A stretch of 64,000 nucleotides of DNA from Diphasiastrum complanatum (Eukaryota; Streptophyta; Lycopodiopsida; Lycopodiales; Lycopodiaceae): NCBI GenBank assembly GCA_029204225.1, contig CM055107.1, positions 6,170,873-6,234,872 on the forward strand, in the 5' to 3' direction. This document shows, piece by piece, positions 184 to 61,374 of this stretch (positions within the stretch are counted from its first letter, which is position 1; the number at the start of each line of letters is the position of its first letter). The position numbers and the translations under genes were made by a program. The notes under the pieces are model-generated. The model was not told where the DNA came from and searched no databases. It worked only from the letters and a program-made list of their open reading frames with translations.

Positions 184-3100
184 CTGCCCAAAAAGAAAAA
201 CCCAGTCTTACGTACTTCATTGATTGATTAACAATGTTTACTGGACCTTCAAAAACATAATCCTGTTATGATCTATCAATCTATGTGAGAATATAAATCA
301 AAACATTTTCCAGAAGTGACAAACCTTAGAGAAGACATTTGTCAGAATGATAAAATAGTCCGTCTGGTCAGATGACATGTTCAGACTTTCCACCACTCTG
401 TCAAACAGTTTTCCTGATTCGATTGCATCGCTAGACATTCTCAAACGTCTCAGAGTCTCTTCAAATTTATTGGTGACACCCGAATCCTTTATAAACCTGT
501 TTATAAATCAGGACATTAAGTTTCATGTCAAAACGGAGAAGCAAGCATATCCAGAAACCCTTGAAAACAAGCAAAAAGTATAAAATGTCTTAGTATCAAT
601 AACAAGACAAGTGCATGTGCAGCATAACTGATAAATACTTCACGGTTTCTTTAAGAAATTACCTCTATTAGCAGATTTTAGGTGTCACCACAACCATGAA
701 TGCTAGACCAAAACTCTTGTTCATATAGTTGATCACTAATAAGTATAAGAACAGTAGGCCAGCTTACACATGAAAAACATCTGGTAATATGTCCACATAA
801 TGCAGAACCATCAAACTTAAACATGTTATTCCAAAAAGTTAAACGTTTAGCTCTTTTGAAGTGAACGATTGTACATGTACTTGAGCTTACCCAGAAACTG
901 TGCTACCATGATGAAGTCCTCCGAGTCGTACCATGCGTACAAAACCAAGGGCATTTCCCATTTCGGCAATGAGGCGTCGAAATTGATCAAGAAAGCTGAG
1001 ACCTTCAGTCAATCCTAGCTTCTTTATATCTTTATTCAGCCTCTCAGCTCTTGCAACAGGGTAGCCATTGTCAATTTTTCCTTTGTTTTCCTGAAAAACA
1101 TCAGCTTTAGTGAGATTGATCAAGCAAGTCTTTTTGAATTTTGAGCAGGACTTGCAGTAAAGCTTTCATCTACAATCTATGAACATGTTGACACCACAGA
1201 ACCAAGAACACATGGAAGCAAAAAATATATATTGAATTGATGTTTCTAACAAAGAAGAACACAAAATGTGACAATATATTGCTTTGTAGCACCCTTCCAA
1301 AGGACACCTGCCATTGACGCTCTCCCATTAAGACGTGTAGTCTCCAAAAACTAGACTGACAGATGAGTTCACCAACTAAGATACAGGCTCCTAAAGCCAT
1401 CCACCCATAAGAGATGGCTGTATCTGACTAGCTTACAAAGAGCCATTTCCTAAATGTTTGTAGAGATATGGCAGGCTAACACTCAGTCAATAGTCTTAAA
1501 ATAATACAAATTAGATAGTTAGGTCTAGGGAAGTTCAAACTTCTAGTTTACTTGAGTGTCATAGGGGTGCAAAAGTTTGCAGGACTGAGGTTCTGAAGCT
1601 TTCCTTCAGAACTTTATTCTGAATATCTTTTGTTTTTAAGTTTTCATAGCCTTACAATTTGAGCTTTACTTCCCTTCCCTACCACTAAAATTTTCCTGGC
1701 CCTAGTAAAGCAAACATGTATATAATCTTGTCATCTTGTTGTGTACAACTGTAGAAAGAAGCAAACATGTATATAATCTTGTCATCTTCTTGTGTCCTTT
1801 TTTATTCTTTGTCGAAGAGAATATGGGCAGGCTCAAGAATTTCTTCATTCCCCGTTACCTCTGGAGGTTCTTCAGAGTTCACTTCTTCAGGAACTTTTCC
1901 AGCAAATGCTTAAAGAATGACATGAAAAGCATTGTTAATTTTCCAAAGAGGAGGAAGTCAGAAGCGTGGCCGGCACTATTTATGACTATTGACTTTGAAA
2001 CCAGTTCTGTGTTGAGGTGATAACTTATATACAACCTGCTTTTTCCTTCATCTTAAGTATTCCTTATCAAACTTCAAATGTACACAATCATCTCTAATAA
2101 AGACCACATCCATTCCTTTCTTGTCTGCTGCTTGCTTTTGCCTTTTGTCCTTGAAGCTTGAAATTTAAGTCTACAGTGGAGTTAGTGTGCTTCCGCACAC
2201 AACTACAGAAGGACATTTTCCAAATGGAGGAATGAACAATATCACTATAAGCAAACTCTACTATTGGCAAATTGTTTTTCCAAATAGCTGTGTTAATTTG
2301 CATAAGACTTAAGGTCAAGCATAGGACTATTTGTAACCTCCAAATGTCCATCCTTTTGAGGATCTTGAAGCAACAGATACAAATAAGTTTGGATCTCAGC
2401 AAAGCATAGCTGATAAATATCTCCAAACCAACTCAAGAACAAAAAAAAACTTATTATTTGAGACGATGGTGACACTGGTCTTACTGTATAGATGCAAAGT
2501 TTGGAGGGGCAACTTATCACATGCAAATGGGCTGAAACTGAGAGGGTTTGAAAGAGGTTCCTAACCTCCTATGTGAAGGTCAAACAAACCACTCCACTTG
2601 CTATGTTGTTAGCTGAAGGCAATGAACTTCCTTTCGAAAAGGCCGCCTTGCTTAAGACAACAAGTTGGAAAGAGTAGATACTTAACAAAAACGGCTATGA
2701 AAGGTGGCTGTCCATGCTCCCTAAGGTTATGAAAAGTTTGGGGGTTGGATGCTGTCAAATGGCTGGTTTTGGAAAATTCACTACAATCCATGGCCCAAAC
2801 AAGTTTCTAACTTGAAATCATGTGTGCAAAAAATCAGTTGGTTCAATTCCAGAATTAACAGGCCTAGAAAAAGGCATTATGAAAAGAATATACCTATATA
2901 ATAAAAAATCAGGCCGTTTCAAAACTCCATATGTATTATGAACTTAGATTGGAAATGGGAAGATGGTGCAATACAAAGCTTGTTTGGGAGGCAAGCACTT
3001 GCTTACTTTGCAACATTGATCAGGTCGAAATGGAGCATCATTATCATTTTCCTGGCCCTAGTAAAGCAAACATGTATATAATCTTGTCATCTTGTTGTGT

Positions 3101-4655
3101 ACAACTGTAGAAAGAAGCAAACATGTATATAATCTTGTCATCTTCTTGTGTCCTTTTTTATTCTTTGTCGAAGAGAATATGGGCAGGCTCAAGAATTTCT
3201 TCATTCCCCGTTACCTCTGGAGGTTCTTCAGAGTTCACTTCTTCAGGAACTTTTCCAGCAAATGCTTAAAGAATGACATGAAAAGCATTGTTAATTTTCC
3301 AAAGAGGAGGAAGTCAGAAGCGTGGCCGGCACTATTTATGACTATTGACTTTGAAACCAGTTCTGTGTTGAGGTGATAACTTATATACAACCTGCCTTTT
3401 CCTTCATCTTAAGTATTCCTTATCAAACTTCAAATGTACACAATCATCTCTAATAAAGACCACATCCATTCCTTTCTTGTCTGCTGCTTGCTTTTGCCTT
3501 TTGTCCTTGAAGCTTGAAATTTAAGTCTACAGTGGAGTTAGTGTGCTTCCGCACACAACTACAGAAGGACATTTTCCAAATGGAGGAATGAACAATATCA
3601 CTATAAGCAAACTCTACTATTGGCAAATTGTTTTTCCAAATAGCTGTGTTAATTTGCATAAGACTTAAGGTCAAGCATAGGACTATTTGTAACCTCCAAA
3701 TGTCCATCCTTTTGAGGATCTTGAAGCAACAGATACAAATAAGTTTGGATCTCAGCAAAGCATAGCTGATAAATATCTCCAAACCAACTCAAGAACAAAA
3801 AAAAACTTATTATTTGAGACGATGGTGACACTGGTCTTACTGTATAGATGCAAAGTTTGGAGGGGCAACTTATCACATGCAAATGGGCTGAAACTGAGAG
3901 GGTTTGAAAGAGGTTCCTAACCTCCTATGTGAAGGTCAAACAAACCACTCCACTTGCTATGTTGTTAGCTGAAGGCAATGAACTTCCTTTCGAAAAGGCC
4001 GCCTTGCTTAAGACAACAAGTTGGAAAGAGTAGATACTTAACACAAACGGCTATGAAAGGTGGCTGTCCATGCTCCCTAAGGTTATGAAAAGTTTGGGGG
4101 TTGGATGCTGTCAAATGGCTGGTTTTGGAAAATTCACTACAATCCATGGCCCAAACAAGTTTCTAACTTGAAATCATGTGTGCAAAAAATCAGTTGGTTC
4201 AATTCCAGAATTAACAGGCCTAGAAAAAGGCATTATGAAAAGAATATACCTATATAATAAAAAATCAGGCCGTTTCAAAACTCCATATGTATTATGAACT
4301 TAGATTGGAAATGGGAAGATGGTGCAATACAAAGCTTGTTTGGGAGGCAAGCACTTGCTTACTTTGCAACATTGATCAGGTCGAAATGGAGCATCATTAT
4401 CATTTTTTAAGCAATTTCCTAAAAGTACTCCTCAATGAGTCCTCGCTTTCTACAAATATTCTTATGATAATCTTAGCGCACTTGGTAGCATTGTTATTAA
4501 AGCGCATGATAGAGGAAAAATCTGCAAGGTGCGTCTAAGTAGTCATTGAACTTAAAATACTTATCTTGTTTTCCGAATTTTAAGACATTGATATTATGAT
4601 TGTTATTTGGTCCCATAGCCCATATTGGTCTCCATGGATGTTAGTAAAGGCAATC

Positions 4656-4713
<58 letters not shown>

Positions 4714-7700
4714 GCACAGAGAACCAACAGCTCCGGACAGAAATGGAAAATAAATATGCTTCCCAGCCAGAAGAAGAGACAAAGATGAAGATTCAAGATC
4801 TGGAACAACGACTGAACCAATACAAAGAATCGACGAACACATGGGCTTCTATCATCACCAAGAACAAAGCTACCAGTCCACCTTGGACAGCCGATGACGG
4901 AAGTAAGTCTCCCCCTTTTTCATCATTCATTTCCGCTACTCTTACGGAAGAGAAACTTTGAGATTCCAAGGCTCTCAATATTAGGGTACGAGGCATCGTG
5001 GACACCCAAAATGCCATTGACGAAGCAAAAAGATTTTTATGCACTACCCTAGGACACAATGCAGATGGTTTGGATACAGCATGGCGTACTAGGAAAGACA
5101 CCACTACCTTGGTCCTCCGCTTCACGTCACATACATATCGTAAGGCAACCTTGCGGAAAAGAACCAAATTGAGAGACACCAAAATCTTCATGGATGATGA
5201 CCTTACCTATATCCAAGTTGAAGAGAGAGGCCAAGCACTCCAAACCGCCAAAGCGACCGGAAGCCGAGCAATCTATCGTGATGGAGTTGTTCGGTACCTC
5301 GATGGTACTGCATCTGGAAACAACCTACAGGAAATTGGGGTCCCCGGGCATGGGAGCATCCCGGGACCCCCTCCACACCACCTACATCTTGGAATATGGA
5401 ACTGTAATGGCATACACTCATCATCCACGGCGGGAGATCTTAACGACTTCATCACAGACAGAGATATATTATTTTTTATGGAGACACATGAGAGCCCAGA
5501 GAGAGGACTACCCACATTTGCAGGTTACAGATGGGATTCAGTTTATAGGACAGAGACTCGATCAGCGAGTGGCAGAGGTTCAAGTGGAGTTGCATGTCTT
5601 TATCGAGAGTCACTACAACCAGTTATAGAGTTTCTCCGACATGATGCACAGGCACGATACATATGGGCTCATATCACTGGGCGAGCTATCGGTTTGGATA
5701 GGGATCTCTTCATTGCTGCCTGCTACTTCCCTCCAGAGTCCTCCTCCTTTGCAGACGGCTTTGGCTCTCCTAATACTGATCTCTCCGTTGACATTGTCAG
5801 ATTTACAAATCGGGGTTATGTCCTTCTCACTGGCGACTTTAATGCCAGGACTGCTACCAGACAGGTGGATTTCCACGACACTGATGACATATTACGTACA
5901 CGAGCTATTTATTGTGAGGACATTGGCATCACTAGGAGCTCAGAGGATATGATGGGCCCTATCACGAGTTATGGAGAGTACCTTCTACAGATGGGTGAGG
6001 CTCACGAGTTGGCTATTTACAATGGCTTGGCTTGCTGGCCACATTCTAGCAGATTCACTTGCCAGCGGAGGACACAGTGTTGTCGACTATCTCATGGGGT
6101 CACCAGCTTTTATCCCACTTATATCTGATTTCCACATTCTTCCCACTACCCTTTCCGATCACTCCTTCCTATCTTTCAGTATGGGCTCCATCCCGACTTC
6201 CCAACCACTCATTATTCCACCCATCTCTCGTGCACCCAAATACACCTTTGATCGCTCTCACATCAAGACATACCAGGAGGCCGTCAGTTCATCTCTTTGT
6301 CATTTTCCCCACCACACGTCGTTGGAAACACAAGCTATCTTCCTTACCACGTCACTACATACCGCTGCAGCATTTTCCTTTCCCTCCAAACCACATCGAC
6401 GCCCACCCACTCCGTCACACCCTATCCGACCTCCCTGGTTTGACGCCGAGTGTCGTATCCTCCATCTCCAAGTTACCCAAGCTAGATTGCATAATACACA
6501 CCTTCTTCCTGCAACTCGTCAATCTTTCCATTATGCCCTCCGACGGAAGAAACGGACGTATGAAACTCAAAAAGGGAAAAGCTTAGTCGATTCCCTTTGC
6601 AGTTCCTCATCTGGTGCCTTCTGGAGAGAATTCATCCCCCGTGCCCCACCTCCTCCCCTCACTGACCTCCATACCTGGACTACATATGCCACTACCTTAT
6701 ATACAGTACCCACGGACACACCCATCTCCATTTCTCCCCGACCGACTACTTTCACTTTCTTCACCCGGGACATGGTCTTGACTGCCATCAAAAAACTGAA
6801 AACTTGTCGCACCCGTGATATTGACAACCTTGAATCCGAACTATTAATCCATGCTGCAGATATACTTTCACCGATCCTAGCCACTTTGCTTAATCAAGCA
6901 GTTGTCTCCGGCTTCCCTTCCTCCTGGTGCACCAACATCATCCACCCCATTCATAAAACTGGTGACCCCATGGACCCTGGAAACTATCGCACCATTATGA
7001 TTGGACACATCATTGCTAAGTTATATGGCACCATCCTACAGTCAGCAATCAGTTCTGAGGCAGAGTCTAGGAGATTACATGCATTGGGCCAGGCAGGTTT
7101 CAGAGCACACTACTCCACCACAGATCATATCTTCACCCTTCGGGCCATTATTGAGGAGGCTAGACACAGAAGAGAACGAGTCTACTATTGTTTTGTTGAC
7201 TTCAGGAAAGCCTTCGACTCTGTTCCACGATCCCTTCTCATTCAGCGTCTACGTGATCTTGGTTTTTCTACTGACATGATCTTGGCAGTGATGGCACTAT
7301 ATGAGAGAGTCCTTGGCTTACATCTTCGGATTGGGCCAGTATTTCACGACTGCAGGTTCTCATGCTATCTCGTATGATACGGGCTAAGCCATCTATCCCA
7401 CATCAGATTATCCTGACAGAGTTCGCGGTCCCTCCCATTCAGCTATCCGCCATCTTCCAGCTTATTCTATATATTCAGCCACAGATGAGCAGAGATACAC
7501 ATAGACGGCACTTGCCTCCTCGCGAGACCTTTATGATCAGGGGCATCGACTATCATGGTTCTCTCAGGCCTCCCGGATACTGGATACACTTGGGATTTCT
7601 ATCACAGACCTTCCATCGGGCACCCATGAGTATATCAGACGCTTTATCTATAGAGCATACCGGATTTCTATCACAAACCTTCCATCGGGCACCCATGAGT

Positions 7701-9016
7701 ATATCAGACGCTTTATCTATAGAGCATACCTGAGCCGGATATGGCAGGGACAGCTCAGGGTCAAACCCGAGGCATGGTGTACGGGCCTCCCCTCTTCACA
7801 CTGGGCCAGCCTTTCACGATTACAGACCACCATTCTAGCTCGGTTGATTCAAGCAAAGCCTTCTATACCACATGAGATTCTTTTGGCGAGTTTGCAGTTC
7901 CACCTATACAGATCGAGGTAGCTCTTCAGCTCATCACCTATATTCAGAGGATACAAGCACTGCCAGAGATAGACAGACGATACATACATATTGCACTTTC
8001 ATCCTCACAGGGCCTTCATGATCAGGGCTATAGACTATCATGGTTCTCTCAGGCATCTCACCTCCTACTTGAGTCATTTGGTATCTCCATCACTGCGCTT
8101 CCCTCGGGTACCCATCAGTATATCAGACGATTTCTCTATCAAGCATACCTAGAGCGGACTTGGAGCAGCCAGTTAGGAGTTAAGCCAGATTTCTACCGGA
8201 CCTACTTTTTGGAGCTGGATGTATCAAGGACCCCAGTCATGCCACGCTACTTGGATTCAGGGCTATCACATTGCCTCAGATTCACACTGGGACAGCTCAG
8301 GGTGTCTTCTCACCAGCTAGCTATTGAGACGGGGAGGTTCCATGGTATTCCCAGAGTGGAGCGGATTTACCAGTTGTGCTCCCTCGGTGAGGTGGAGTCT
8401 GAGGAGCATTTTATCTTCAGATGCCCGGTATATTATGAGATCAGAGGGAGATATCACTGCTTGTTTCGAGACATACCTACCACTCTACGTTCTCTCATAG
8501 CCTATGAGGACCCACGGTGTGTCGTGCTGATGGTACACGAGATGTTCTATTGCGGAGAGATCTACACGGGACATCCCAGCACATTAAGTCTCAGTCATTG
8601 ATCATTTCATTCTTTACTAGACGGAGATCACGTGTCTCAGTACCCGAGGATGATGACTACTATGACGACGAGGATGACAGTCGCTTACATGCCCACAGAG
8701 ATCAGAGACGATGTACCTCCCATACTGCCAGGATAGTCATACCTCATATACAGAGACATACTACACATGCTCATGCTCATAGACGACACCAGCGGGCTCC
8801 AGCGCTTTCTCATGTTGCGGCTCGCATTACATCTTTCTACAGCACCAGCACAGACTTGACATCTTGATTGCAGATGATTACTTGTTTATTTAGTTGATAC
8901 TAGTTGTTTTCTTTATTTCAGTTTTGGAGACGTTCTATGTGCTCCCATGGTTACTACACACTTGGCATGTACCTCATTAGTCTTATATGCCTTTTGGCAT
9001 GGAAAAGACATTAATA

Positions 9017-9088
<72 letters not shown>

Positions 9089-12000
9089 GATGGCAGCAGT
9101 GCGACCATCGCGACCAGCATGGACCTCGCGACTGCTCGCTGACTGTTTCCCTGGCCAGCTGATCTGGCACGGTCCTAACTGACGCGGTCCTAACAGACGG
9201 ATCTCTGAGCGGATCTCTGCGCAGACTGATCTCTGAGCACGGACGGATCTCTGAGTGGACTGATCGCTGAGCATGGACGGATCTCTGTACGGGCAGCATG
9301 GACGGATCTCTGAGCGGACAGCATGGACCTCGCTCTGCAGCATAGCTTTCTGAAGGGCACAGATCTCTGAGCAGGGCTTGTCTGAGCTCTGGACATTTGA
9401 GCAGACATCTGGGGAGGTGGAACGGACATCTGGGAAAGCGGACCTCTCTCTTTCTCACACCTGAAGCTGTCTATCAACTGACATTCCTTGGAGCGATGGC
9501 TCCACGCAACAAACGAGGGGGAGGTAACTCCCCCCACTCTCCACCATGCCCTACTTTGGGAGCCCCATAAAACACCCCCCTGTCCCTCACATCTAAGTTT
9601 TTGGCACCTGCTCCTGCCATCGTACCTGTTTTAAGTGTATCCACCGCATCCACTTCTGATCTGTCCACTGCATCTGCATCGGAATCCAAGACGGATGCTC
9701 GCCCTACTGTCGAAACATTTGCAGTTAATCAATTGCCCACAGTCAATTATACCCCCTCCAAACCTACTGAAGGCCTCTTTGTTTTTGACACTAGCTTTAT
9801 TCGACAAGAAATCATCGGACTCAAAAGACAATTACACTCTTTTGAAATTGAGAACGGCAAGCTGATTTTGGATCTCTGTGGGGTTAAAAAGTGAATGGAG
9901 CAGCTTGAACAAGAAAATGTATATCTTAAGCAACGGATTGCGGAACATATCCCTCAAAAGAATATATTGGAGGAGACGTCGAACAAAATATCCAGCCTTG
10001 AGAAACAAGTGGAAGAAACGAAGACATGGGCAGCGCGTCTCAAAAACGATGGTAAGGTCGGATCTTCAAGCTCGGTTCAACATGCAGTTATGAATTCTAC
10101 ACTAGAAGATGTCTTCTCCGAGCAAGAAAGAAGGGCTAAAAAGCCATTAATATCCGGGTTAGGGGGATTCCCGACGGGATAAGCCCATTGAAGAGGCAAA
10201 AGACCTCCTTTTAACTAAGCTCACACACACCACGGATGGATTTGATACAGCTTGGAGAAGTAAGTTTGACACTAATGTCTTGTTTATCAAGTTTCGCTCT
10301 ATGAACAGCCGCAACGCAGCTTTACGCCTTAGAGCCAAATTGAAAGGGACTTTTATTTTTATGGATGATGACCTTACACACACACAATGGCAAGCCAGGA
10401 AACAAATTATCCAGGATGCAAATGCAAGAAATCAGCGGGTGGTTTTCATTGAAGGCAAACCAAAAAATTTTGATAAAATTTCTCAATAGGGATTTGGGAC
10501 TCTTGGGCAAAGGAGCAGCCCAAGATCCCCTCAGCCTTTACATATTGGTTTTTGGAATTGTAATGGCATACTATCATCTTCTTCAGCAGGTGACTTCCAT
10601 TCTTTCATGCTGAAATGTGATATCCTTTTGTTAGCAGAGACTCATGAATCCTTATATAGACCGCTCCCATCCATACAGGATTGCACCTGGCACTCAGCGC
10701 ATCGGCCCTTTGTGAGAGGGAAGACCTCCCGTGGTTCTGGTGGTGTTGCTTGTCTCACCAAGGATGTTTTCAGTTCTCATTTTAAACTGGTCAAAAGTGA
10801 TCCATTTGCACGCTTTATTTGGTTTCAGTTCTCTGGTCACTGTTTGGGGCTTTCTCGGGACCTCTTTCTTGCAGTTTGTTACTTTGCACCACAGACATCA
10901 TCTTTTGCAGATTTTGGTGGTGACCCTTTCCAGGCTCTCTCATATGATATATTCAGCTTCGCAAAGCGAGGCCTTATTCTTTTAGCAGGGGATTTTAATG
11001 CTCGTACGAGCATCAGGCAAGCTGTGTTTTATGCAGAGAGTGATTTTCTACAGGTTCGCACATTAGATATGGGCTTTGACAGGACCTCACAGGATGCAGA
11101 TACTCCAACTACCCACCTTGGAGAGAGGCTGATTGCTTTAGCAGAGGCCCATTCCTTAATTATTTTGAATGGCCTTCCTTACTGGCCTTCGTCATATCAT
11201 TTCACTTGTCACCCACATGGAGGAGGACATAGTGTTGTTGACTACTTCATTGGGTCACCGGCTTTGATCCCATTTCTTCATACCTTTCGCATTATACCTC
11301 CTACCATTTCGGATCACTCCCTCCTACTTCTATCCCTTGGTCATCATAGTACCACCGTCACAACACACCGTCCCACTCATCACCATCGCCCGGTTTTCTC
11401 TCCATCTGGTTTCTCCCTTTACACCGAGTCCCTAGTTACTTTTCTCCAAGACTTCCCCTTCACCTCCTCAGTTGACCAACAAGCTATCTTTTTATCTCAG
11501 TCTCTTTTGCAATCTGCCAATACTACCTATCCTTCGAAAACCTTTCCTTCGCATAAACGCACTCACAACAAATGGTATGATACAGAGTGCTACAAGTTGT
11601 ATACGCTAGATACCACTCTCCTCACACCCTAGCCTTGAAACAAAGAGAATATCACAAAGTGACTCTGAAAAAAAAGACAGCTTATCTCCAGTCCTTGGGA
11701 CAAAAACTTGTTGATGCTATTGCCTCCCCATCCTCCCATTTCTTTTGGCGGATGTTCTCTAAAAACCCTTATAAACCCGCTCCTATTGCTATTGAATCAT
11801 GGATAAATTATGCTACTAAGCTTTATACAGTTGACTCTCTTTCCATTTCTCTTTCCCCACGCCCTTCAGAATTCACCCTCTTTACCCCGTCCATGGTTGA
11901 AAATGCCATCCAAATTGGTCAAACCCAAAAAGCCACTGATGTTGACCTCCTAAGTATGGACTTCCTAAAACCAGTTGCTCACATTATTGCCCCATACATT

Positions 12001-14229
12001 TCCCAAATCTTTAACCAATCTGTCATCTTCGGTCTCCCCACATCGTGGTGCACCAACCTTTTACACCCTATCCTCAAAGCCGGGGATCATTTGATTGTCG
12101 ACAACTACTGCATTATTATGATCAGTCATACTATGGCCAAGCTATATGGATCCGTTTTACAGTCTATTGTCAGCTCACGAGCAGAGACAGAAGGGTTACA
12201 TGCTATGGGACAGGCAGGTTTTAGCGCTGGCTACTCCACGGCTGACCAGATATTTATCTTGAGATGCATTATTGAGGAGGCTAAGTTCAGGAAGCAGAGG
12301 GTTTATTGTTGCTTTGTGGATTTCCGCAAAGCCTTTGATTCTGTTCTGAGACACCTTTTACTCCAGCGCTTAGCATTGCTTGGCTTTCTCAAGAGATCAT
12401 TGCTGCTATCATCACATTGTATGAGAGAGTGTTGGCCCGTTTTCGAGATGGTGATGGATGGTATAGTGGGAGTTAAGCAGGGATGTCCTTTGTCCCCTAC
12501 TCTCTTTGATCTATATATTGATGATCTTGAGCGGATTATAGGGAGGAGGGTGGAGATGGCTGTCAGTTAGCAGATATGATTATCCCTATTCTACTGTATG
12601 CGGATGACGTGATACTTCTATCAAGATCCGCATCTGGGCTTCAGCAGCACCTTGATGCTTTATATACTTTCTGCCAGACATGGGGTTTGATGGTGAACAT
12701 TGGTAAGACTAAGGTCATGGTGTTCAACACCAATCGACAGCATATGAGAGACAGAGTGTTCTACTATGATAGGCTTCCACTGGAGATAGTAGCCTCTTAT
12801 ACTTAGGTGTCCTTTTTACTGGTCCATTGCTCACTTTTAGACCAGTTGCACTGTCTGGGCTCCGCAAGGGGCACTCTACTCTTGTCCAGATGGAGAGGTT
12901 TTCCTCTATTTACTATGTACATGATCCTGATACACGTTGTCGCCTTTTTTCTGCGATTGTCTCTGCGGTGGCTCTATATTCAGCAGAGACATAGTGTCCT
13001 GGCTTGTCCAGAGATACTTGGAGTGATATTTCACGTTTGCATATCCTTATGCTTAGTCGGATGATCCGTGCGAAGCAGTCAGTTCCCCATGATATCATAC
13101 TGGCAGAGTTTGCCTCACCACCACTGATTGTCGAGCCTATATTTCGGATTATCACATTCATTCATAGAGTCTCGGAGATTCATCCAGATATGTTGCTACA
13201 GCTTTCACATCCTCTCACACTCTAGCTAGTCAGCAGGCTAAGTCCTCATGGTTTCAGTGTGTTTCTGACCTTTTAAGTAGGTGGGGTTTATCTATATCTG
13301 ATCTCCCGAACGGGACACACGCATATATTCGCCAGCAGATTTACAGAGCTTACATCAGCACAGTGTGGTCTCACCCAGATCCAGCACGGGTCAAGCTTCA
13401 TTTTTATCACACTCAGCTTCTTCAGCTGGATGTTTCCGGGCTTCCCATTCGACTGGGTTATTTGTCTCAGACGTAATCTTTCGGCCTGCGTTACCGTCTT
13501 GGTCAGTTTAGGGTCTCTTCTCACCAGCTTGCTTTTGAGACAGGCAGATACACAGACACACCTCGACCACTACGGATTTGTCAGTGCTGCTCTTTACAGG
13601 AGATTGAGGATGAGCTCCATTTTATTTTCTGATGCCCAGCCTACTATGAGATTAGAGGCAGATACCATTGCTTATACAGAGATACTCCACTTACACTTGC
13701 TTCTTTCCTTGCCTTCTCAGATGCGAGATGTGTTGGTTTATTATTGCGAGAGATGTTTACTCTCAGATCTTCCTTTTTATTGGATGTTTCTGATATGGAT
13801 CATAGCCAGTCCCACATTACGCACTTTTTCCAGAAGAGGGATAGAGATGAGACTTATGACAGTGAGTTAGACATTCCAGCACGACGACCGAAGCTCCAGC
13901 ATCCTCTTCGCTCCTCCAGGCCCAGGGCTCTTCATCGGAGGCCAACACCTGCTTCTCACCGTATCACGCAATTTTTTATATCCACTTAGCCAGTTAGCTA
14001 ACTTATTTCAATTTTCTCTTTCCCTCTGTGTAGCTGGTGGTTAAGCTACTGATATTGTACCCTCAACAGAGCTGGAGGTTAAGCTTTGTTTTTCTCTCTG
14101 TTTTCTAGTGCTGGTTTAGCTGTTAGAAATAAGTCCTACATGGACAACGCTCCTTCTTTTTTGATGTACTCTCTACTTGTCTTATGTGCCCTCGGGTACT
14201 TAACAGACATTAATATAATTCTAATTCTG

Positions 14230-14325
<96 letters not shown>

Positions 14326-40886: not shown

Positions 40887-40954
<68 letters not shown>

Positions 40955-43900
40955 GGTGCAGCTCCTCCTCTCATGATGGTGCCCTCTCTATGGCGCGCTC
41001 CCCATGGATATGACCCCTCGGTGCTGACCTTCCAGTGCTGTGATTTGTGCTCCACCTCCCTATCTCAGATCCGCCCTACCCTGTCCATTCCCGTCTGCAC
41101 CCAGGTTCTACCCTGTCCTGTCCGCACCTGTCCTGTGCGCTCTACCTTGTCCTATCCGCACCCTGTCCTGTCCGCATATGGCCTCAATCAAAAAAGATGG
41201 GGCTCCTTCGCCCCCCTCTTCTCATGCTTTCGTTGGCCAGGCTTCTGCTGGCCAGTCGGCCTTCGATGGCTCTTCCCCTTCTTTTGCAGGTCTGACTTTT
41301 TCATCCCCTCATTCTCCATTGCAGGGCATTGCCAATGCGCCAGTTCCGATATTATCTCATGCAGATTCCTACCTTGCCTGTCATATCCCTGCTGAACAAT
41401 TACAACCTAGCAACTTATCCGACTTTAGGCTCTTAATATACAAGTTAGGGGTATTCCTAATGGAAACAAGGCCCTTGATGAGGCAAAAGACCTTCTTGAA
41501 TCTAACTTGCACATAATATGGAGGGATTTGACACTGCTTGGCGGAGCAAATTTGATGATAAGGTCTTATTCATAAAGTTTCGTTCCATTGATCGACGCAA
41601 TGCTGCTTTACGCCTTCGAGCTAAGCTCAGAGGATCTTTTATGTTTATGGATGAAGATCTAACACACACACAATGGCAAGCGAGGAAATTGGTCATTCGT
41701 GAGGCCAATGCTAAAAATCAAAGAGTGTCTTTATTGAAGGCAAGCTTAAATTCTACGATAAGATTTCACAATAGGAAGTCGGGGATCCCGGGCACAACAT
41801 TACGAATTAATTTTTGGAATTGTAACGGTGTGCTTTCATCTTCTTCAGCAGGGGATTTTCACTCTTTTTTGCAGAAATGTGATATTTTGCTCTTAGCGGA
41901 GACTCATGAATCACTATATCGACCCCTTCCAGCCATTCAGGATTACTCATGGCATTCAGCATATAGGCCTTTCTTGAGAGGAAAAACCACACGTGGCTCT
42001 GGTGGTGTTGCATGTCTTACCAAGGAAGTTATCGTACTCATTTTAAGCTGCTCAAAAATGATCCATTTGTGCGATTTATTTGGTTACAGTTTTTTGGTCA
42101 CTTCTTAGGGCTACCTCAAGATCTCTTTATAGCAATTTGTTATTTTGCACAGCAGACATCAGCTTTTGTAGATTATGGTGGTGACCCCTTCCAGGCTCTT
42201 TCCGATGATATAGCCAGCTTTGCACAGTACGGCCTTATTTTATTAGCAGGAGATTTTAATGCTTGCACCAGCACCCAGCAGACAAAGTTTCATGCAGATA
42301 TTGATTTCCTACATATTCAGGTTTTGGATGTGGGTTTGGACAGGACCTCTCAGGATGCAGATACTCCAGCTACACACGTTGGAGAACAGTTGATTGGACT
42401 TGCAAAAGCTCACCCTTTAGCCATTCTGAATCGTCATCAGTTTTTACTGTCATCCGCACGGAGGTGGACACAGCCTTGTTGACTACTTCATTGGCTCACC
42501 AGCCTTGATTCCATTTCTTCATACTTTTCATATTATGCACCCTACCATCTCTAATCACTCTCTATTGCTCCTGTCTCTTGGCCATGCTACTGTTACGACA
42601 CCGCATTCCACACGTCGTCATCGTCCTTCTTTCTCTCTACTTGGTCTTCCTACTTACAATTCCTGTCTGGCCACAATGCTCGACGATTTCCCCCTTCTCA
42701 TCTTCAGTAGACCAACAAGCCGCCTTTTTATCTCAGTAGCTTCTTCGTTCAGCCAATACTGCATATCCTCCAAGAACTTTTTCATCTCATAAACACACTT
42801 ACAATAGATGGTATGATGATGAGTGCCTTTCTCTACACAAGCAGGCTGTTCACGCTCACTATCATTCTCCCGACACCTTAGCATCTAAACAAAGAGAATA
42901 CCATAGAATGACTTTGGGGAAGAAGACGTACTTTCAGTCTCTGGCACAGAAACTCATCAATTCCTTAGACTCCTCTTCTTCCACCTTCTTTTGGAAGATG
43001 TTTTCTAAAAACTCCTGTATGCCAGCTCCTATTGCCATTGAATCGTGGATTGAATATGCTGCAAAACTTTATACAGTTGACTCTCCTTCCATCTCTCTCT
43101 CACCGCAACCATCAGAATTCACCCTTTTCACTCCGTCCATGATTGAAAACGCCATCAAAAATGGCCAAAACCATAAAGCCATTGATGTTGACTCTCTAAG
43201 TATGGACTTTCTAAAACCTATCGCCCATATTGTTGCTCCATACATCTCCTACGTTTTTAACCAATCTGTTACACCTTGGTGTACTAACCTTTTGCACCCT
43301 ATACTTAAGGCTGGTGATCCTCTGAATGTAGACAACTATCGTACTATTATGATCAGCCACACTATGGCTAAGCTCTATGGTTCGGTTATGCAGTCTATCA
43401 TCAGCACTCATCCGGAGACAGAGGAGTTATATGCTCTGGGACAGGCAGGTTTTAGAGCAGGCTACTCCACAGCGGACCAGATATTCATACTAAGATGTAT
43501 CATTGAGACAGCGAAGTTCAGGAAACAGAGATCTGAGAGTCTATTGCTGCTTTGTGGACTTCCACAAAGCATTTGATTCGGTTCCGAGACACTTGCTGCT
43601 CCAACGTTTGGCATCCCTTGGTTTCTCACAGGAGGTCATTGCTGCTATCATCACATTCTATGAGAGACTTTTGGCCCCATTTTGTGATGGAGATGGATGG
43701 TCTTCATATATTCATAGTACGGTCGGAGTAAAGCAGGGGTGTCCTTTATCACCCACCCTTTTTGCTCTATACATTGACGACCTTGAGCGGATCATTCGGG
43801 AAGAAGGTGGAGATGGCTGTCCTCTAGCAGATATTGTTATCCCTATCCTTCTTTATGCAGATGATGTGGTTTTACTATCTAGTTCAGCTGCAGGACTTCA

Positions 43901-46900
43901 GCGACATCTGAATGCCTTGTGTACTTTTTGTCAGATATGGGGGGTGCTAGTGAACATTGGTAAGACTAAGGTTATGGTGTTTAACACCAACAGGCAGCAT
44001 ATGAGAGACACTATGTTCTATTTTGATGGACAGCTTCTAGAGATAGTGGCGTCTTACACATACCTGGGTGTTCTCTTCTCTGGTCCATTGCTTTCTTTTA
44101 GACCAGCTGCATTGGCTAGGCTCCGCAAGGGGCGCTCTGCTCTTGTTTAGATGGAGAGGTTTTCCTCTACTTATTACATGCATAACCCAGACACACATTG
44201 TCGCCTCTTTTCTTCCATTGTTTCTCCAATGGCACTGTATTCAGCAGAGACATGGTGCCCAGGCTTATCTAGAGACACTTGGAGTGACATCTCGTGTTTG
44301 CAGATTCACATGCTTAGCCGGATGATTCAGGCCAAGCAGTTCGTTCCTCATGAGATTATTTGGCAGAGTTTGTTTCTCCTCCACTGATTGTCGAGGTTAT
44401 TTCAGGATCATCACGTTCATTCACAGAATCTCAGAACTTGATTCTTCCATATACATGGTAGCGGCTTTTACATCTTCTCGCACTTTGGCCGGGCAGCGGG
44501 CTAAGTCTTCATGGTTTCAGTATGCTTCGGACTTTCTACATAGCTGAGAATTATCTATGTCTGACCTCCCAAATGGGACTCATGCGTTCATTCGCCAACA
44601 GATCTACAGAGCATACATACATATTGTTTGGTCTCACCTGGATCCTTCACGGGTTAAGCTTCAGTTCTACCGCATTCACTTTCTTCACCTGGATGCTTCA
44701 GGGCTTCCCGTTAGACCGAGTTATCTCTCTCAGACGCTACCTTTTGGCCTGCGCTACCACATTGGTCAGCTTCGGGTCTCTTCTCATCAGCTCGCTATAG
44801 AGACCGGCAAATACACAGACACGCCACAACCATTACGGATATGTCGGTGTTGTACACTACAGGAGGTTGAGGATGAGTTTCACTTTATTTTCATATGTCC
44901 ATCTTACTGTGAGATCAGAGGCAGATACCATTGTCTCTATCGGGACACTCCACTCACGCTTGGTTCCTTCTTTGCCTATTTAGATGCGAGATGTGTTGGT
45001 TTACTTTTGCGAGAGATGTTCTCCTTGAGATCTTCACTTCTGTCGGATGTTCAGGATGTTGACCACAGCCAGCCACATATCACATTTTTCTTTCAGAAAA
45101 GAGCTAGGGAGAATACTTCGGATAGTGAGATTGACATTCCAACTCGTCGACTGAAGCTCCAACGTCTTCCTCAACCATCCAGAGTTCATCATCAGAGGCC
45201 ACCATGTGCCTCACACCAGATCACTAAAGGTCCCCTAGACATTGTATGAATGACAATATGGAACAATTCCTCTAGCTGAATAGGGGGGACGGCGAACTCC
45301 GCTAGTATACTATGATGTGGTACAGAGGGCTTAGCCCGTATCATCCAAGATAGCATATGAACCTGAAGTCGTGAGATGTGTGCCCACTCGGTGGCCATCA
45401 GGCCAGTACTCCATGTTTCTGATGCGGACAGGGCTGAGGGGACTACCATAGTGTCAAAGAGTCTGCACTTACTAGTCGCATCCCTAATGTGTGAGCTAAA
45501 ACATAGTCTCTCCGAATCTACCAATGATGCATAGCCCTTCTGTAACCGGGAAACTGCCACCTGTCACATGCTGAAAGTGGGGCAGATACCACACCTAGGT
45601 ATGTGTAGGAGTCAACTGCCTCAAGTGGATGTCCATCCCATAGAAGCTCCTGCCGCATCATGAAGGATCTGGAGGTGTTAAACACTATAACTTTGGTCTT
45701 GGCCACATTCACTGACAGTCGCCACTATATACAAAAGGAGTGAAGCGCATCCAGATGCCGCTGTAGGCCTTCCCTCATCCTCGAAAGCAAAACCACATCA
45801 TCCGCATAATAGGATAGCAATAACGAGGTCACCCAGTGTACATCCCTCTCCTCCATATCTCTGTATAATCTGCTCAAGCTCATCTATATATAAACCAAAG
45901 AGTGTAGGTGAAAGTGGACATCCCTGCTTAACCCCAATAGTACTCTCTATCTCTGGTGAGACAACACTTGATACCCGGATCCGGCCAATAACTCTTCTGT
46001 ACAGTGCCACAACTACCTGTATGTGGCCTAAAACCAGCCTGGCCAATGGCATGCAGTGCTCTGGAATCCATCTCTGTACTGATCTCCGACTGGAGAATAG
46101 AACCATAAAATTTGGCAAAGAGGTGGCTAACCATGATGGTACGATAGTTGTCGACTTTCATGGGATCACCGCCTTTATGGATAGGATGGATAAGGTTGGT
46201 GGACCAAGGGGAGGGGAACCAGATGTGATAGCGCGGTTGAAATGGAAAGAGAGGAAAGGTGAGAGGATGTCAGCGGCATGCTTCAAAAGTTCAGCCTCTA
46301 ATTCGTCAATCTCTTTGGATTTATGTAGGTTTAATCGGTCGATGGCTTCTTTTACTATGTTTGGAGAGAAATATCAGAGGTACAAGTGTATGGGTGTGTG
46401 GGAAGCGGAGGTGCATCAGGTACAGTGTACAGCGATGTGGCATAGGTCACCCATGTGCTAAGATCTGTGATCCTGGGTGGAGGTGCTCTTGAAAGGAACT
46501 TTTGCCAAAAGGATCTCGACGACGAGCTAAAGAGAAGGTCCATCATCTTCTTTCCCTCGCAGATTTTGTATGTAATTTTCTTTTTTCGGGTGGTTCTACG
46601 ATATACACGGGATAAGTCCTTCACTAGATGGGGAAGGTGGCAGCGTGCATAAACCAAGTTTAGGTGAAGTTGGTTACATTCGTGGTCATACCAGGGGTTA
46701 TGTGGCCGACAATGTCGTTTGGACCATGGGGATGGAAAAGCAAGGGATACAGCGATAATGCACGGTTTGGACAAGAAAAAGAGACTGGTCCGCTAAAGTA
46801 TGTTCGTAGGGAAAATGAGTCAGGAGGTCAGATAAGGCTTCCCTGTACAGGAGTGTTTTGAGGGTTATAACGATATACGGTCTTCTCGATAGGGGTTAAC

Positions 46901-46930
46901 ATACGAGTGTATGGGGTGAGAAGAAGGCCA

Positions 46931-46996
<66 letters not shown>

Positions 46997-49448
46997 ATGG
47001 TCAGATAGGGTGGTGCGGTGAACCAAGAGGGATGAAATGGAGGGAAAGAGAGATGGCAATCCCATGAAATAGTCAACAACACTACGTCCTCCGCATCAAA
47101 ATCAGGTCAATACAGTAAGCCATTATAAATAGCCAATCCATGAGCCTCGCCCAACTGAAGCATCTGCTCTCCATATGCAGTAATTGAACCCTCCGCATCT
47201 GCTGATCGTCGTCGGAGGCCAAGATCATCCCAGTCCAAAGCATGTATCCGCAGTGGGTCATCCTCTGTGGAACTCCATCTGCCTGGACCTAGTCCTGGCG
47301 TTAAAGTCGCCAGCTAAAAGAATATAACCGCGCTACTCGTATCTGATAATGTCTGAAGAGACATCCCCTCCTGTAGCTGAAGAGTGAATGCCATTGCAGT
47401 TCCATAACCTCAACCGCAATGCTCTAGAAAGAGCCCCTGAACCGCTACCGGAGGATCAATGTACCGAGCCTTACCATCCCGATAAATTACCCTCTTCCCC
47501 AAAGCTTTTGCCTCACTGAATGCTTTCTTCTGATCCGCAACCTGCATGGGAGTGAGATCATCATCCATAAATATAAGTGCACCTCTAAGCTTGGTCGCAA
47601 TTTGAGGGTTGCCCGTCTTTCTTCTAAATTCGTGAAGCGAACAATGAGAAGATTCTCATCTTCTACAAGCACCTCAATCTTGAAAGAGGGAGCATTTGAT
47701 CTACAGGTGTCAGATCAAGTTGAGTCTTGCACTGTTGGAGAGCTATTGTCAAGGGGAGAAGGATGATCCAAAAACTTTCTAAATCTGGCTAAGTTTTGGG
47801 GAGTCTTTCTGGAGGAGCTTACACAAAAGTAGGGCGCATTTTCTATAGGGGCTTCTGGTTTCTATTCCAGTGAGGCCTAGTGCTTGTGCTAGTGAGGCCA
47901 TACCAAGTGGCAAGGACAAAAGCAGGAGCTGAAGGGTTGCCTTGAAGTGGCTACATACCCTAGTTTGGGGTCAAACCCTTGTTGGTGGAAGTTGTTTCTT
48001 TTCTGATCTTTTTCAGGTTGAGCTTATGTTTGAGCACAGATTATAGCATGGCTAGTCTTGGGGAGAGTTTGTTGGGTGAATCCAACAAACTAGATGGCAC
48101 AACCTACAGAGTGTGGAAGTTCAAGATGGCTAATATCTTGATGGACAAGAATTGCTGGGAGGTGATGGCAGGTACAGAGCCTGTACCAACATCTGATCCT
48201 GAATTGAAGGACTACATGAACAGGAGACAGAAAGCTCATAGGATAATCAATCTTTCTGTCAAGGACAATATTATTCCTCACATTTGCAATGCAAGGGATG
48301 CAGCGGATGCTTGGACTATTCTGAAGTCTATGTTTGAAACAGTGGGTTCAGCCAAGCTAGTGTATTTGCAAAACAGGTTACATTCTCCACAAATTCACTT
48401 GTACCATCCATCTCAAGTTCCTCTATAGGAGGCGTTTGATCTTCTTCAAAGATCACATCTCGACTTATGATCCTCTTCTTGCTAGTAAGATCGTAAAGTC
48501 GGTAAGTTTTGCTTTCTTTATTGTATCCTAAGAAAATACACTTTGCTGATTTTGCATCCAGCTTCTTCCTTTTATCCTTGGGAATATGGGCATAGGCCGT
48601 ACAACCAAACACTCGCAAAGCGCCCACCTTGGGCTAAATGCCACTAAATGCCGCTTCTGGAGTCCTGCCTTCCACAGCTTCGGTTCTTTCTCTTGGCTAC
48701 GCCGTTTTGCTGAGGGGTATGAGGAGCTGTAAGCTGCCTTTTGATCCCATTGGCCTTGCAGAATTCCACAAACTCTGTCTTAATGAACTCTCCGCCACCG
48801 TCTGACCTAAGCATCTTTATCTTCTTTCCTGAATGTTCTTCTACCAAAGCTTTGAAATGCTGGAAGTACTTGAATGCTTCAGATTTTAGCTTCAAGGATT
48901 AAATCCAAATCTTGCATGAGAAGTCATCAATAAAGGTCATAGAGTAAAATGCCACCCCTGCAGATTTGGTTTGGGTAGGCCCCCACAAATCTGAATGTAC
49001 CAAGTCAAGTATACCTGCTGCCCTGGTGGTGCTCTCCTTGGGAAACTTCTGTCTTTGCTGCTGAAGAGCTTGGCTTTTTAACAACTGGAAGCCCCTCCAC
49101 CGTATGATGCTGGTTCAACACCTGCATGCTTTGGTAGCCAAGATGTTGCCCACAGACGACGCCAGCAGGCTCCAGCGCTTTCTCATGTTGTGGCTCGCAT
49201 TACATCTTTTTATAGTATCAGTACAGCAGCAGCAGCAGCAGCACAGGCTTCGCAGTCTTGACATCTTGACATAGATACATACGATCAGTATGCACACACA
49301 CCGCATACGTGTCTATTTTAGTTTGTACTAGATGTTTTTCTTTATTACATATTGGAGACGTTTTATACGCTCCCATGGTTACCACAAACTTGACATGTAC
49401 TTTTAGTCTTATATGCCTTTTGGCATGGAAAAGACATTAATAAAGCTT

Positions 49449-49506
<58 letters not shown>

Positions 49507-49545
49507 CCTCCCTCCCTCCCTCCCTCCCTCCCTCCCTCCCTCCCT

Positions 49546-49598
<53 letters not shown>

Positions 49599-50823
49599 CA
49601 GCGGATCTCGAGCGGCCAGCGATGGCCTAGCTCCATCCGCTAATTCCAGTGTGGTGCTCCACCTGCGGACCTGTTATCCATCTCTGCCCATCACTGCCCA
49701 TGGCTACTCTTGCGGATCTATACCTGAATGTATCTCTGCAGGTTTGAGCGCCCTCCTTCATCGCAATAAGATCCCTCAGAATGCCACGCCGCAGAGGAGC
49801 CATTGCCCCTACTCCTGAGCCATCCTCCGTTTCAAACATTGCCTCAGCATCTTCCTCACAACCAGATCCACCTTCCCCTTCTCCTTCTATGCCTGTTGCG
49901 GTTCCTATCTCCCCATCAAATCCTATTCTTGCCAATACTGAAACTACTGTAGCTATAAATACCTTAACAATCACAGAGAGAAACTTGTTTCTCATAAGTT
50001 GGATACTTCCATTCAAGAACTCAAGAACGAAGTTGTAGTTACAAAAAGTGAAGCTTCTTCCCAAATCACTACTTTAGCTAAAATCCAGCAGCTCGAAAGT
50101 CAGGTGGAACAGTACCATATGGCTGTCCAATCATGGGCAGATGTACTGGTTCGTCTACAATTATCTCTCGACCTTCGCCTTCACCTTCGTTTATCTCAGC
50201 CACATTCACTAAGAGCCGTTTGCGAGAGCTCTCAATGTTCATGTTAGAGGTATTCCGAACTCCCAAAATGCTGTTGAAAAAGCTGAGAAGTTTTTGGAAG
50301 GAAATCTTCAACGCCATAGCAAAGGTATGGAAACTGCCTGGCGACCTAAGAAGGACCTTGATACTCTTGTCATCCGCTTCACATTAGTGTCTCACCGGTG
50401 TGAAGTTCTAGGGAAGAGATTCAAAGGCGGGATACCAAAATCTACTTGGACGAAGATCTTACCTTCATCCAAGTTCAAGAACGTAAGAAGGCAAGACAAG
50501 AAGCTCTATCAACTAGCAAACGGCTTATCATCGTGATGATATTATCAGACTGGTAGATCGGAAGCCTATAGTTAATGAGAAGAATTTTGAGATAGAGTCT
50601 GAGATAGAGAAATGAAGACATGTCCAGTTGAACATGTAAATGGTCTACGCACCATATAATCCTGGCTATATGACTCTTCTTAGTTAGTTTTTGTTATTTT
50701 GCTTTGACGGCACCGATCCGTCTTGTTTCCAACTTACCTGATGTACTTGTTCATCTTATACGCCTTTTGGCATGGAAAAGATGTTAATGAAGCTTTCTTT
50801 CTTCTTCTTCTTCTTCTTCTTCT

Positions 50824-50875
<52 letters not shown>

Positions 50876-54721: not shown

Positions 54722-54792
<71 letters not shown>
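54722..54792 (+). repeat. (CT)n microsatellite
   Basis: About 35 CT units. No LINE end is recognisable on either side, unlike most other arrays here. Confidence 0.98.
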
Positions 54793-58613: not shown

Positions 58614-58950
<337 letters not shown>

Positions 58951-60169
58951 TTTACATGGTGCAACCCGAAGGTTATATTATCGAGGGTAAACATAATCAT
59001 GTGCGTAAACTCCATAAGGACCTTTATGGCTTGAAGCATTCTGCTCAAGCATGGTTACAAAGGATCAATACTTTTCTTATTGATCATGGCTACACACCTA
59101 GCTCTTCAGATTCAAATGTTTACTTCAAAGCAGTGCAACATTCTTTTATCATTATCACTTTATACATTGATGATATATCACTTTTCAGCAACAGTACCGA
59201 TCTAATAAAAGAGGCCAAGAAAATGCTATCTTCCGAATTCGACACGACCGATCTGGACGAAGCTCATTTCTGCCTTGGTATACAAATCCACAGGGACAGA
59301 AAATAGACTTTGGTCTATATTACACAACATAGGTACATCTACAACATGTTAATCAGATATAATCTGATTAATTGCAAGTTAGCTCTCTCACCAATGGAAC
59401 CGAATCTCAAATTGTCAAAGAACCAGTGTCCCCAAACAATTCATGAGAAGCTGCAGATGTGAGTATCCTTACCATTCTATTATAGGATCTCTTATGTACG
59501 CCATGATCTGTACCAGGCTAGACATAGCTTTTGTAGTCAGCTCTCTCAGTTAGTTTATGACTAATCCTGGTGTAACACATGGGAAGGCTCTTATCAGAGT
59601 CATGAGATATCTTCGAGCTACTATGGTCTTTTGCATTTGTTATGGAACAGTTGGCAACGACAAACTCAATTTACTCAGTGGTTACACAGATGCAAGTTGG
59701 GCAAGAGATGTAGACACTCGTAAATCCACTTCTGGATTTACATTCTTCCTCAACAATGGTCCAATTTTTTGGAACAGTCGCAAGCAATCTTTAATAGCTC
59801 TATCTTCCACTGAATCAGAGTATATCGCAGCCTCTCAAGCTACAAAGGAAGCAATTTGGTTGAGGAACTTACTCTCAGATATCGGTCTGAATCAATATGC
59901 TTCGACGACATTATTTTGTGATAATCAAGGGGCCATTGCTTTATCAGCCAACCGTAGATTTCATTCTAGGAGTAAGCACATTGAGCTGAAGTATCATTTC
60001 GTCAGAAGCAAAGTTCTCAATGAAGAGGTCAGATTGTAGTATTGTAGAACGCAAGATATGACATTAGAAATTTTTTTACCAAAGCATTAAGTTTGGAAGC
60101 ACACAAAAGATTCTATGTAGAACTAAGTTTGAAGGTCAAGGCATTCAAGGATTCAGATTAAGGGGGGGG

Positions 60170-60843
60170 TGTTGGATTATTCTCCGTTTTACTAATCGAC
60201 TAATCGGTTTTAATCTTCATCCATTGTTTATCCAGATCTGCGGATTTTCCCGTGTCTTTACACAGTCTGCAAATTTACAAGTGTTTTTACACAGTCTGCA
60301 TAAATATATGGAGTTTGACAATAGTGTCGTATTTTCTCTCTCTACAATCCAGATATTGACGCCTGTCAGGAAGTACGTGTAAAAATGCAGTATTGCCTTT
60401 TATTTTTCGCCTGTCAGGATTTACGAGTAAATATGCAAAGTCACATTTTTTGCATTTTTCGAAGTGCCTCAAATGTTAAGGAAATTACTCTGGCAAAGTG
60501 TGGGGCTACTCTTAATGAGATTTAAGAACACTGTCGGATTTTTCACAAAAGCCCGACACTATTACCTTTCTGCGACACTGTCGCCTGTGGTAGTTTTAGT
60601 TCATTTCTACAGAGTGACAATTTTTGTTCATTTATACATATAGACTATTTACGGCCAATTTTCACTACTTATCAGCAATCAATTTCTGAGAAGGAACTGG
60701 ATGAATGCCAACGGACATCAGCCAACTGGCAATCACATTTGACAACCTAATTACTTAGTATAAATCAACTGTTCATACATCTCTTTTCACGCTTTTGAAG
60801 TTCAGAAGTTTTTGATCAATAGATCAACAAGTATTGAATAGTT

Positions 60844-60932
<89 letters not shown>

Positions 60933-61374
60933 CCAAGCCTGCGAGCTTGAACACTCCTAAGCATTCTAGCTCACTTCTTAGAGTAGTTTAGAGATTGCTA
61001 TTACGCTTACTACTTATCAGCATTGCACTTAATTCAGACATCCATTTTGGCCGCTCAGAGATAGCTTAGAGTACGCGGCTTCAATCTGCAACTTATTGTA
61101 CTTGGCATTTATTTCTGTTTCATTTTCATACTGAATCAATACTATCATTTATTGCATTTAGGTTCATCTCAGAATGCATGAATTCTGTAGTTCTTTCGCG
61201 ACTAATTATTTGTCTGATAATTCATTGCATTATTGTTTGGCTATGTAATAGTCATGCATGAAGAAAGAGGAAGATAGTCTATTCCACTGCACATGATAAG
61301 TTTTCTTTCTTGTCGTTCGAATTCTTTTTATTCGAATCTTATTCGACCTATCTTTCACATACCTCTTTCCAACA
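60170..61374 (+). repeat. Copia 3' LTR containing a (CT)n array
   Basis: Starts TGTTGGATTATTC right after the PPT and ends TTTCCAACA, giving TGTTGGA/TCCAACA ends. At 1,205 bp it is long for copia and includes about 42 CT units at 60846-60930. Confidence 0.75.
60846..60930 (+). repeat. (CT)n microsatellite within copia LTR
   Basis: Perfect array between ..GAATAGTTAG and CCCCAAGCCTGCG; no LINE sequence at either edge. Confidence 0.98.

What the first reader, a model, noticed from the sequence alone, without database searches (positions are those of the whole stretch)
4659..14322. A plant LINE family that sits in (CT)n microsatellites and forms head-to-tail LINE-(CT)n-LINE arrays
LINE1 and LINE2 lie in the same orientation as (CT)26-LINE1-(CT)33-LINE2-(CT)45, with the element edges exactly at the CT tracts. 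The same arrangement is seen at 40889 (LINE3), 49447/50797 (LINE4, both sides), 50872 (LINE6) and 58739 (LINE5). Animal R1-clade LINEs with microsatellite targets are known, but I know of none described for plants. Either the endonuclease nicks (CT)n/(GA)n or the transcript's (CU)n tail anneals to GA repeats during target-primed reverse transcription.
Basis: partly seen in the sequence, partly recalled or inferred. Interest (0 to 1): 0.92.

Follow-up and report, generated by a model that had tools for sequence, protein, structure and literature searches.

The report
Clubmoss LINEs nested in CT microsatellites
In a stretch of clubmoss DNA, every intact tail end of a family of old jumping genes (LINEs) and most of their front ends lie exactly at a long CT repeat, which suggests that these plant elements prefer CT repeats as landing sites and so pile up head to tail; this habit is known from animals but I found no plant case described.

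Summary
In this window all four recognisable LINE 3' ends and six of eight 5' ends abut long CT tracts (22-62 repeats, two compound), CT on the LINE sense strand. Ten of 15 tested ends lie at tracts; 200,000 random placements gave 3 at most. The order is (CT)-LINE1-(CT)-LINE2-(CT); (CT)-LINE3-LINE7/4a-(CT)-LINE4b-(CT)-LINE6; and (CT)-LINE5. The host is the clubmoss Diphasiastrum complanatum or a close relative (ORF1 piece 97% identical). The LINE has an APE-type endonuclease, an RT outside the sampled L1 rows and 10 of 11 RNase-H-bearing rows, an ORF1 with weak fold likeness to human L1 ORF1p and a 3' stem-loop before the tract. Best explanation: insertion into existing (CT)n by target-primed reverse transcription, the (CU)n RNA end pairing with the GA strand. 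At least three insertions landed at a CT tract whatever its origin. Not excluded: element-borne tails reused as targets, or short CT seeds expanded later. The genome-wide test could not be run: the genome search did not complete (22 calls). R1-clade kinship is not shown.

The parts
4659..4711 (+). (CT)26 tract, left edge of array 1, between non-LINE DNA and LINE1
   Evidence: the 3'-end model finds no LINE 3' end on its left
4712..9019 (+). LINE1, 5'-truncated inside ORF1, lacks part of RT, 3' stem-loop 8978-9018
   Evidence: (EN 9.7e-10, RVT_1 9.7e-9)
9020..9086 (+). (CT)33 tract between LINE1 and LINE2
9087..14231 (+). LINE2: about 410 bp of 5' UTR, ORF1 (from about 9496), in-frame TAG at 10487, ORF2 with EN, RT and C-terminal Cys/His motif (motif by eye), 3' stem-loop 14177-14217
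   Evidence: ORF1 piece 97% identical to a D. complanatum protein
14232..14322 (+). (CT)45 tract, right edge of array 1
40889..40952 (+). (CT)32 tract, left edge of array 2, next to non-LINE DNA
40953..45225 (+). LINE3 (75% identical to LINE2 over 3.9 kb), 3' end missing
   Evidence: RVT_1 2.7e-24
45226..47716 (-). LINE7, antisense piece (ORF1 to RT); limits approximate; possibly the inverted 5' part of the same copy as LINE4a (twin priming, inferred)
   Evidence: RVT_1 2.7e-4, below Pfam's cut-off
46933..46992 (-). (CT)30 on the LINE sense strand, inside LINE7 coding DNA
49147..49448 (+). LINE4a, 3' end only, stem-loop 49404-49444
49449..49596 (+). Compound CT/CCCT tract between LINE4a and LINE4b
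49597..50798 (+). LINE4b: 5' UTR and ORF1 joined by internal deletion to the 3' UTR, stem-loop 50751-50791
50799..50872 (+). (TTC)10(TC)23 tract between LINE4b and LINE6
50873..51788 (+). LINE6, 5'-truncated inside the endonuclease, 3' end missing
58615..58739 (+). (CT)62 tract upstream of LINE5, next to non-LINE DNA
58740..58920 (+). LINE5, short 5' fragment with ORF1 start, followed by Copia-like DNA; right limit approximate
   Evidence: assigned by eye from an ORF1 start like that of P0069; not found by the protein probes

Best explanation
A lycophyte LINE lineage inserts preferentially into existing (CT)n/(GA)n microsatellites. Most likely steps: an APE-type endonuclease opens the GA strand inside a tract (inferred); the element RNA, which ends in its 3' stem-loop followed by a (CU)n stretch, anneals through (CU)n to the GA strand 3' end, and reverse transcription starts there (inferred); the 5' end, full-length or truncated, joins the other half of the tract (shown as end state). 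Each insertion leaves CT on both sides, so the target survives and later copies land beside it in the same orientation, giving LINE-(CT)n-LINE arrays (shown as end state). Whether the endonuclease itself reads CT, or tail pairing does the choosing, is open.
For: 10 of 15 tested ends at CT tracts against at most 3 in 200,000 random placements. 4 of 4 recognisable 3' ends and 6 of 8 5' ends at CT, CT on the LINE sense strand. Two 5'-truncated copies, LINE1 (cut inside ORF1) and LINE6 (cut inside EN), also start at CT, so the 5' CT is not simply element sequence. The leftmost copies LINE1, LINE3 and LINE5 have CT between them and DNA in which no LINE 3' end was found. At least three junctions (LINE1|2, 4a|4b, 4b|6) need an insertion at an existing CT tract whatever its origin; tracts are 838 of 64,000 bp, so 3 or more of 7 insertions by chance is 7.6e-5. 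(CT)35 at 54722 shows that long CT tracts exist without LINEs. A stem-loop lies just upstream of the tract in the four 3' ends: z -4.3, -3.5, -1.4, -3.05; two of 11 pairs doubly compensated.
Against: One 64 kb window with three clusters; no genome-wide count and no empty site. The tracts are mostly perfect beside decayed LINEs, so they have changed length since insertion. CT also lies inside LINE7 coding DNA (46933) and in an LTR-like stretch (60846), so CT can expand here without LINE insertion. The agreement of strand is weaker than it looks: 9 of 10 tracts read CT on the + strand, the two non-LINE ones included. The stem-loop covariation rests on three distinct rows (LINE1 and LINE4a are identical there) and 52 of 500 shuffles reach it; one end folds poorly (z -1.4). 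Target duplications cannot be seen in a repeat. LINE6 lies in the tail of LINE4b, and LINE1 could lie in CT that belonged to LINE2, so neither alone proves a host microsatellite as target. Two of eight 5' ends (LINE7, LINE4a) are not at CT; the DNA between them contains Copia-like sequence.
Confidence: 0.65

Rival explanations
1. Element-borne tails: the LINE carries its own (CU)n 3' tail (and perhaps a CT-rich 5' end), inserts without regard to CT in the host, and later copies nest in tails of earlier ones, as Zepp nests in its own copies in green algae.
For: All four 3' ends have CT after variable linkers (none, CTTTCTTT, (TTC)10, ATTCTAATTCTGAT), like a slippage-prone tail. The three inter-element junctions can be explained by insertion into a neighbour's tail. 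Zepp nested clusters are described in PMC8226300 (passages).
Against: Leftmost copies LINE1, LINE3 and LINE5 have CT on the 5' side facing DNA in which no LINE 3' end was found. LINE1 is 5'-truncated and still starts at CT, unless it landed in CT belonging to LINE2's 5' end.
Confidence: 0.2
2. Short CT seeds expanded later: LINEs inserted at short CT-containing sites, target duplication put CT on both sides, and slippage expanded them.
For: Mostly perfect long tracts beside decayed LINEs; (CT)30 inside LINE7 coding DNA and (CT)42 in an LTR-like stretch.
Against: Perfect CT/GA tracts of four or more repeats in the window have 4-5 or at least 22 repeats with none between, and no other dinucleotide tract exceeds 12. 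This would still be a preference for CT-containing sites.
Confidence: 0.12
3. Tandem duplication or unequal crossing-over multiplied LINE-CT units.
For: Head-to-tail order in one orientation.
Against: Neighbours have different 5' ends and truncation points; LINE1/LINE2 match only in short blocks at 68-77% apart from the 3' end.
Confidence: 0.02

Closest known systems
(TC)n-targeting Kibi and relatives, Tx1 group, fish (Kojima and Fujiwara 2004; names and targets recalled, paper not seen, only its title in the reference list of PMC4640811)
   Same: APE-type LINE in a CT/TC microsatellite
   Different: Animals; membership in Tx1 not tested here because no Tx1 sequence was at hand
R1-clade microsatellite LINEs such as Mino in AC repeats (PMC3124438, passages)
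   Same: APE endonuclease; insertion in a dinucleotide repeat
   Different: Known from animals; this RT lies outside the group that holds 10 of 11 RNase-H-bearing rows, and its ORF1 looks weakly L1-like
Togen, (TG)n-specific NeSL-related elements of fish (PMC4640811, passages)
   Same: Dinucleotide microsatellite target
   Different: NeSL relatives carry a restriction-like endonuclease; here APE-type
Zepp and Zepp-like L1 of green algae (PMC8226300, passages)
   Same: Green-lineage LINE forming clusters by nested insertion with 5' truncation
   Different: Zepp targets its own existing copies, at centromeres in Coccomyxa; here the junction is a CT microsatellite and neighbours differ by subfamily
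Plant L1 with conserved 3' hairpin, maize/sorghum lineage (PMC3747384, passages)
   Same: Stem-loop near the 3' end
   Different: Most plant L1 end in poly(A); here CT; RT apart from the sampled zf-RVT rows

Membership tests
APE-type non-LTR retrotransposon (LINE) | RT domain plus APE-like endonuclease in ORF2 | tested here: met
APE-type non-LTR retrotransposon (LINE) | 5'-truncated copies with a common 3' end | tested here: met
   LINE1, LINE6 truncated (by eye); four 3' ends share a stem-loop
L1 clade | RT groups with L1 | tested here: inconclusive
   LINE3 groups with P0001-P0006 and P0015 (99/99); human L1 with two zf-RVT rows and two others is a separate group (98/97), but the deepest fork is weak (45/81) and no Tx1 or named algal L1 was sampled
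L1 clade | ORF1p of coiled coil, RRM and C-terminal domain | tested here: inconclusive
   Low-confidence model of P0069 (a D. complanatum relative, not the window copy; pLDDT 60.8, pTM 0.25) has the order of helices and strands expected; top four Foldseek matches are human L1 ORF1p, best E 5.9e-5 but TM 0.20/0.28 and rmsd 13. Sequence profiles found none
Tx1 group | RT groups with Tx1 | not tested
   No Tx1 reference was at hand
R1 clade | RT groups with R1 | tested here: inconclusive
   Outside the 26-row group (98/92) with 10 of 11 RNase-H-bearing rows; the eleventh, P0053, sits elsewhere; no named R1 sequence was in the tree
Microsatellite-specific LINE | Copies lie in the same repeat motif in one orientation | tested here: met
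   In the window only: 10 of 16 ends, including 4 of 4 recognisable 3' ends
Microsatellite-specific LINE | Motif holds genome-wide, empty sites carry the motif | not tested
   The genome search unanswered in all 22 calls

The most novel reading that the evidence does not exclude
A land-plant LINE lineage, outside the sampled L1 rows and nearly all RNase-H-bearing rows, has evolved (CT)n target specificity and keeps its own target alive: each insertion splits a CT tract and leaves CT on both sides, so arrays grow head to tail. It would be the first such case in plants, possibly combined with UAG readthrough between ORF1 and ORF2.
Probability: 0.5. Interest if true: 0.75.

Novelty: new variant of a known kind. 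Interest (0 to 1): 0.6.

Why it matters
Microsatellite-specific LINEs are known from animals. A plant lineage with the same habit would be an independent or very old case and would make the choice between endonuclease reading and RNA-tail pairing directly testable. It would also offer one explanation for CT microsatellites that split and spread in large non-seed-plant genomes.

Tried and rejected
Genome-wide copies: the genome search on the own genome did not complete (22 calls). Viral contigs, searched with relatives P0001-P0006 and P0015: 102 pattern matches, none a relative by tblastn. Proteins spanning the 3' end/GA junction: none. ORF1 by sequence profile against PDB and Pfam: no L1 ORF1 match. 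EN piece against PDB by sequence: none at E 0.01. Rfam at gathering score: none. Tandem duplication as origin of the arrays: disfavoured on divergence. R1-clade membership: not supported, not fully tested. Genome contigs (prokaryotes) and metagenome contigs were not searched.

Full report
What is there. The window holds ten long CT tracts (two compound): seven at LINE ends, one inside LINE7, one outside any recognised LINE or Copia sequence (54722) and one in an LTR-like stretch (60846). Perfect CT/GA tracts of four or more repeats have either 4-5 or at least 22 repeats, with none between. LINE coding sequence found by tblastn with 17 protein probes at E 1e-3 lies at 4923-8598, 9571-13971, 41429-45225, 45249-47604 (antisense) and 49942-51786, all within arrays 1 and 2. 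LINE4a was found by blastn. LINE5 (58740-58920) was assigned by eye from its ORF1 start and was not found by the probes.

Array 1 is (CT)26-LINE1-(CT)33-LINE2-(CT)45. Array 2 is (CT)32-LINE3-LINE7 (antisense)-DNA with Copia-like sequence-LINE4a-(CT/CCCT)-LINE4b-(TTC)10(TC)23-LINE6. The antisense LINE7 followed by the sense 3' end LINE4a has the order expected of one twin-primed copy, which is an inference. The third cluster is (CT)62-LINE5 fragment, followed by Copia-like DNA (by eye; the ORF 59557-60036 there has no Pfam match).

Chance. Ten of the 15 ends given to the test lie at a tract; random placement of the ten tracts gave 3 at most in 200,000. The LINE4a 5' end, not at a tract, was not in that test, so it is 10 of 16 in all. 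A model of the 3' end, built from the four known ends, finds those four in the window and nothing else better than E 1.6. A stricter count takes only junctions that need an insertion at an existing CT tract whatever its origin: at least three (LINE1|2, 4a|4b, 4b|6), though the length of the tract at that time is unknown. Tracts are 838 bp or 1.3% of the window, so three or more of seven insertions by chance is 7.6e-5.

What chooses the site. Two truncated copies, LINE1 and LINE6, begin at CT, and three leftmost copies have CT facing DNA in which no LINE 3' end was found. This favours existing CT as the target. It is not proof: LINE6 lies in the tail of LINE4b, and LINE1 could have landed in CT that belonged to the 5' side of LINE2. 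LINE2, LINE3 and LINE5 may be full-length, so a CT-rich element 5' end is not excluded for them. CT is on the LINE sense strand at all ten ends, as expected if the GA strand is always the primer, but 9 of the 10 tracts in the window read CT on the + strand anyway, the two non-LINE ones included, so this argument is weak.

Host. A LINE2 ORF1 piece is 97% identical (100 of 103 residues) to O6H91_Y354900 of Diphasiastrum complanatum, and five of the eight hits are from that species. The window is from it or a close relative. A distant relative with EN and ORF1 parts occurs in the fern Adiantum nelumboides (P0020, 30% identity over 27% of the query).

Known work. Kojima and Jurka (PMC4640811, passages) place most target-specific LINEs in early-branched, Tx1 and R1 lineages and describe (TG)n Togen. 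Mino in AC repeats is named in PMC3124438 (passages). General TE-microsatellite association is described in PMC3547029 and PMC12477314 (passages). Zepp nested clusters are in PMC8226300 (passages). Searches of the held library returned 35, 0, 0, 1 and 44 papers, of which 20, 0, 0, 1 and 15 were listed; I saw no plant LINE with a microsatellite target in those titles and abstract starts. Subscription papers are not held. Kibi and its (TC)n target are recalled.

Verdict. The arrangement is real and far beyond chance. Preferential insertion into (CT)n is the best reading, at 0.65, resting on one window. The decisive genome-wide count remains to be done.

Noticed in passing
10487-10489 (LINE2), 41772-41774 (LINE3), 5328-5330 (LINE1): In LINE2 ORF1 and ORF2 are in one frame separated only by TAG, with no ATG before the first EN motif; LINE1 has CAG there and one long ORF; LINE3 has the TAG, but its downstream frame is shifted, probably by a deletion. 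Six bases downstream lies a hairpin with 3 of 12 pairs doubly compensated between LINE1 and LINE2 (66 of 500 shuffles reach this; LINE3 has lost most of it; z -2.0, -2.1, -0.4). Possible stop readthrough.
   Followed up: partly
46933-46992: (CT)30 on the LINE sense strand inside LINE7 coding DNA, in the EN-RT linker, where LINE1 and LINE2 have no long CT.
   Followed up: no
60170-61374: LTR-like stretch with TGTTGGA...TCCAACA ends that holds (CT)42, next to Copia-like coding DNA (by eye).
   Followed up: partly
1690-4406: 1.36 kb tandem duplication, 99.85% identical: recent, or an assembly effect.
   Followed up: no
9170-9337: LINE2 5' UTR holds short tandem repeats (15, 16, 25 and 34 bp units), perhaps promoter repeats.
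   Followed up: no
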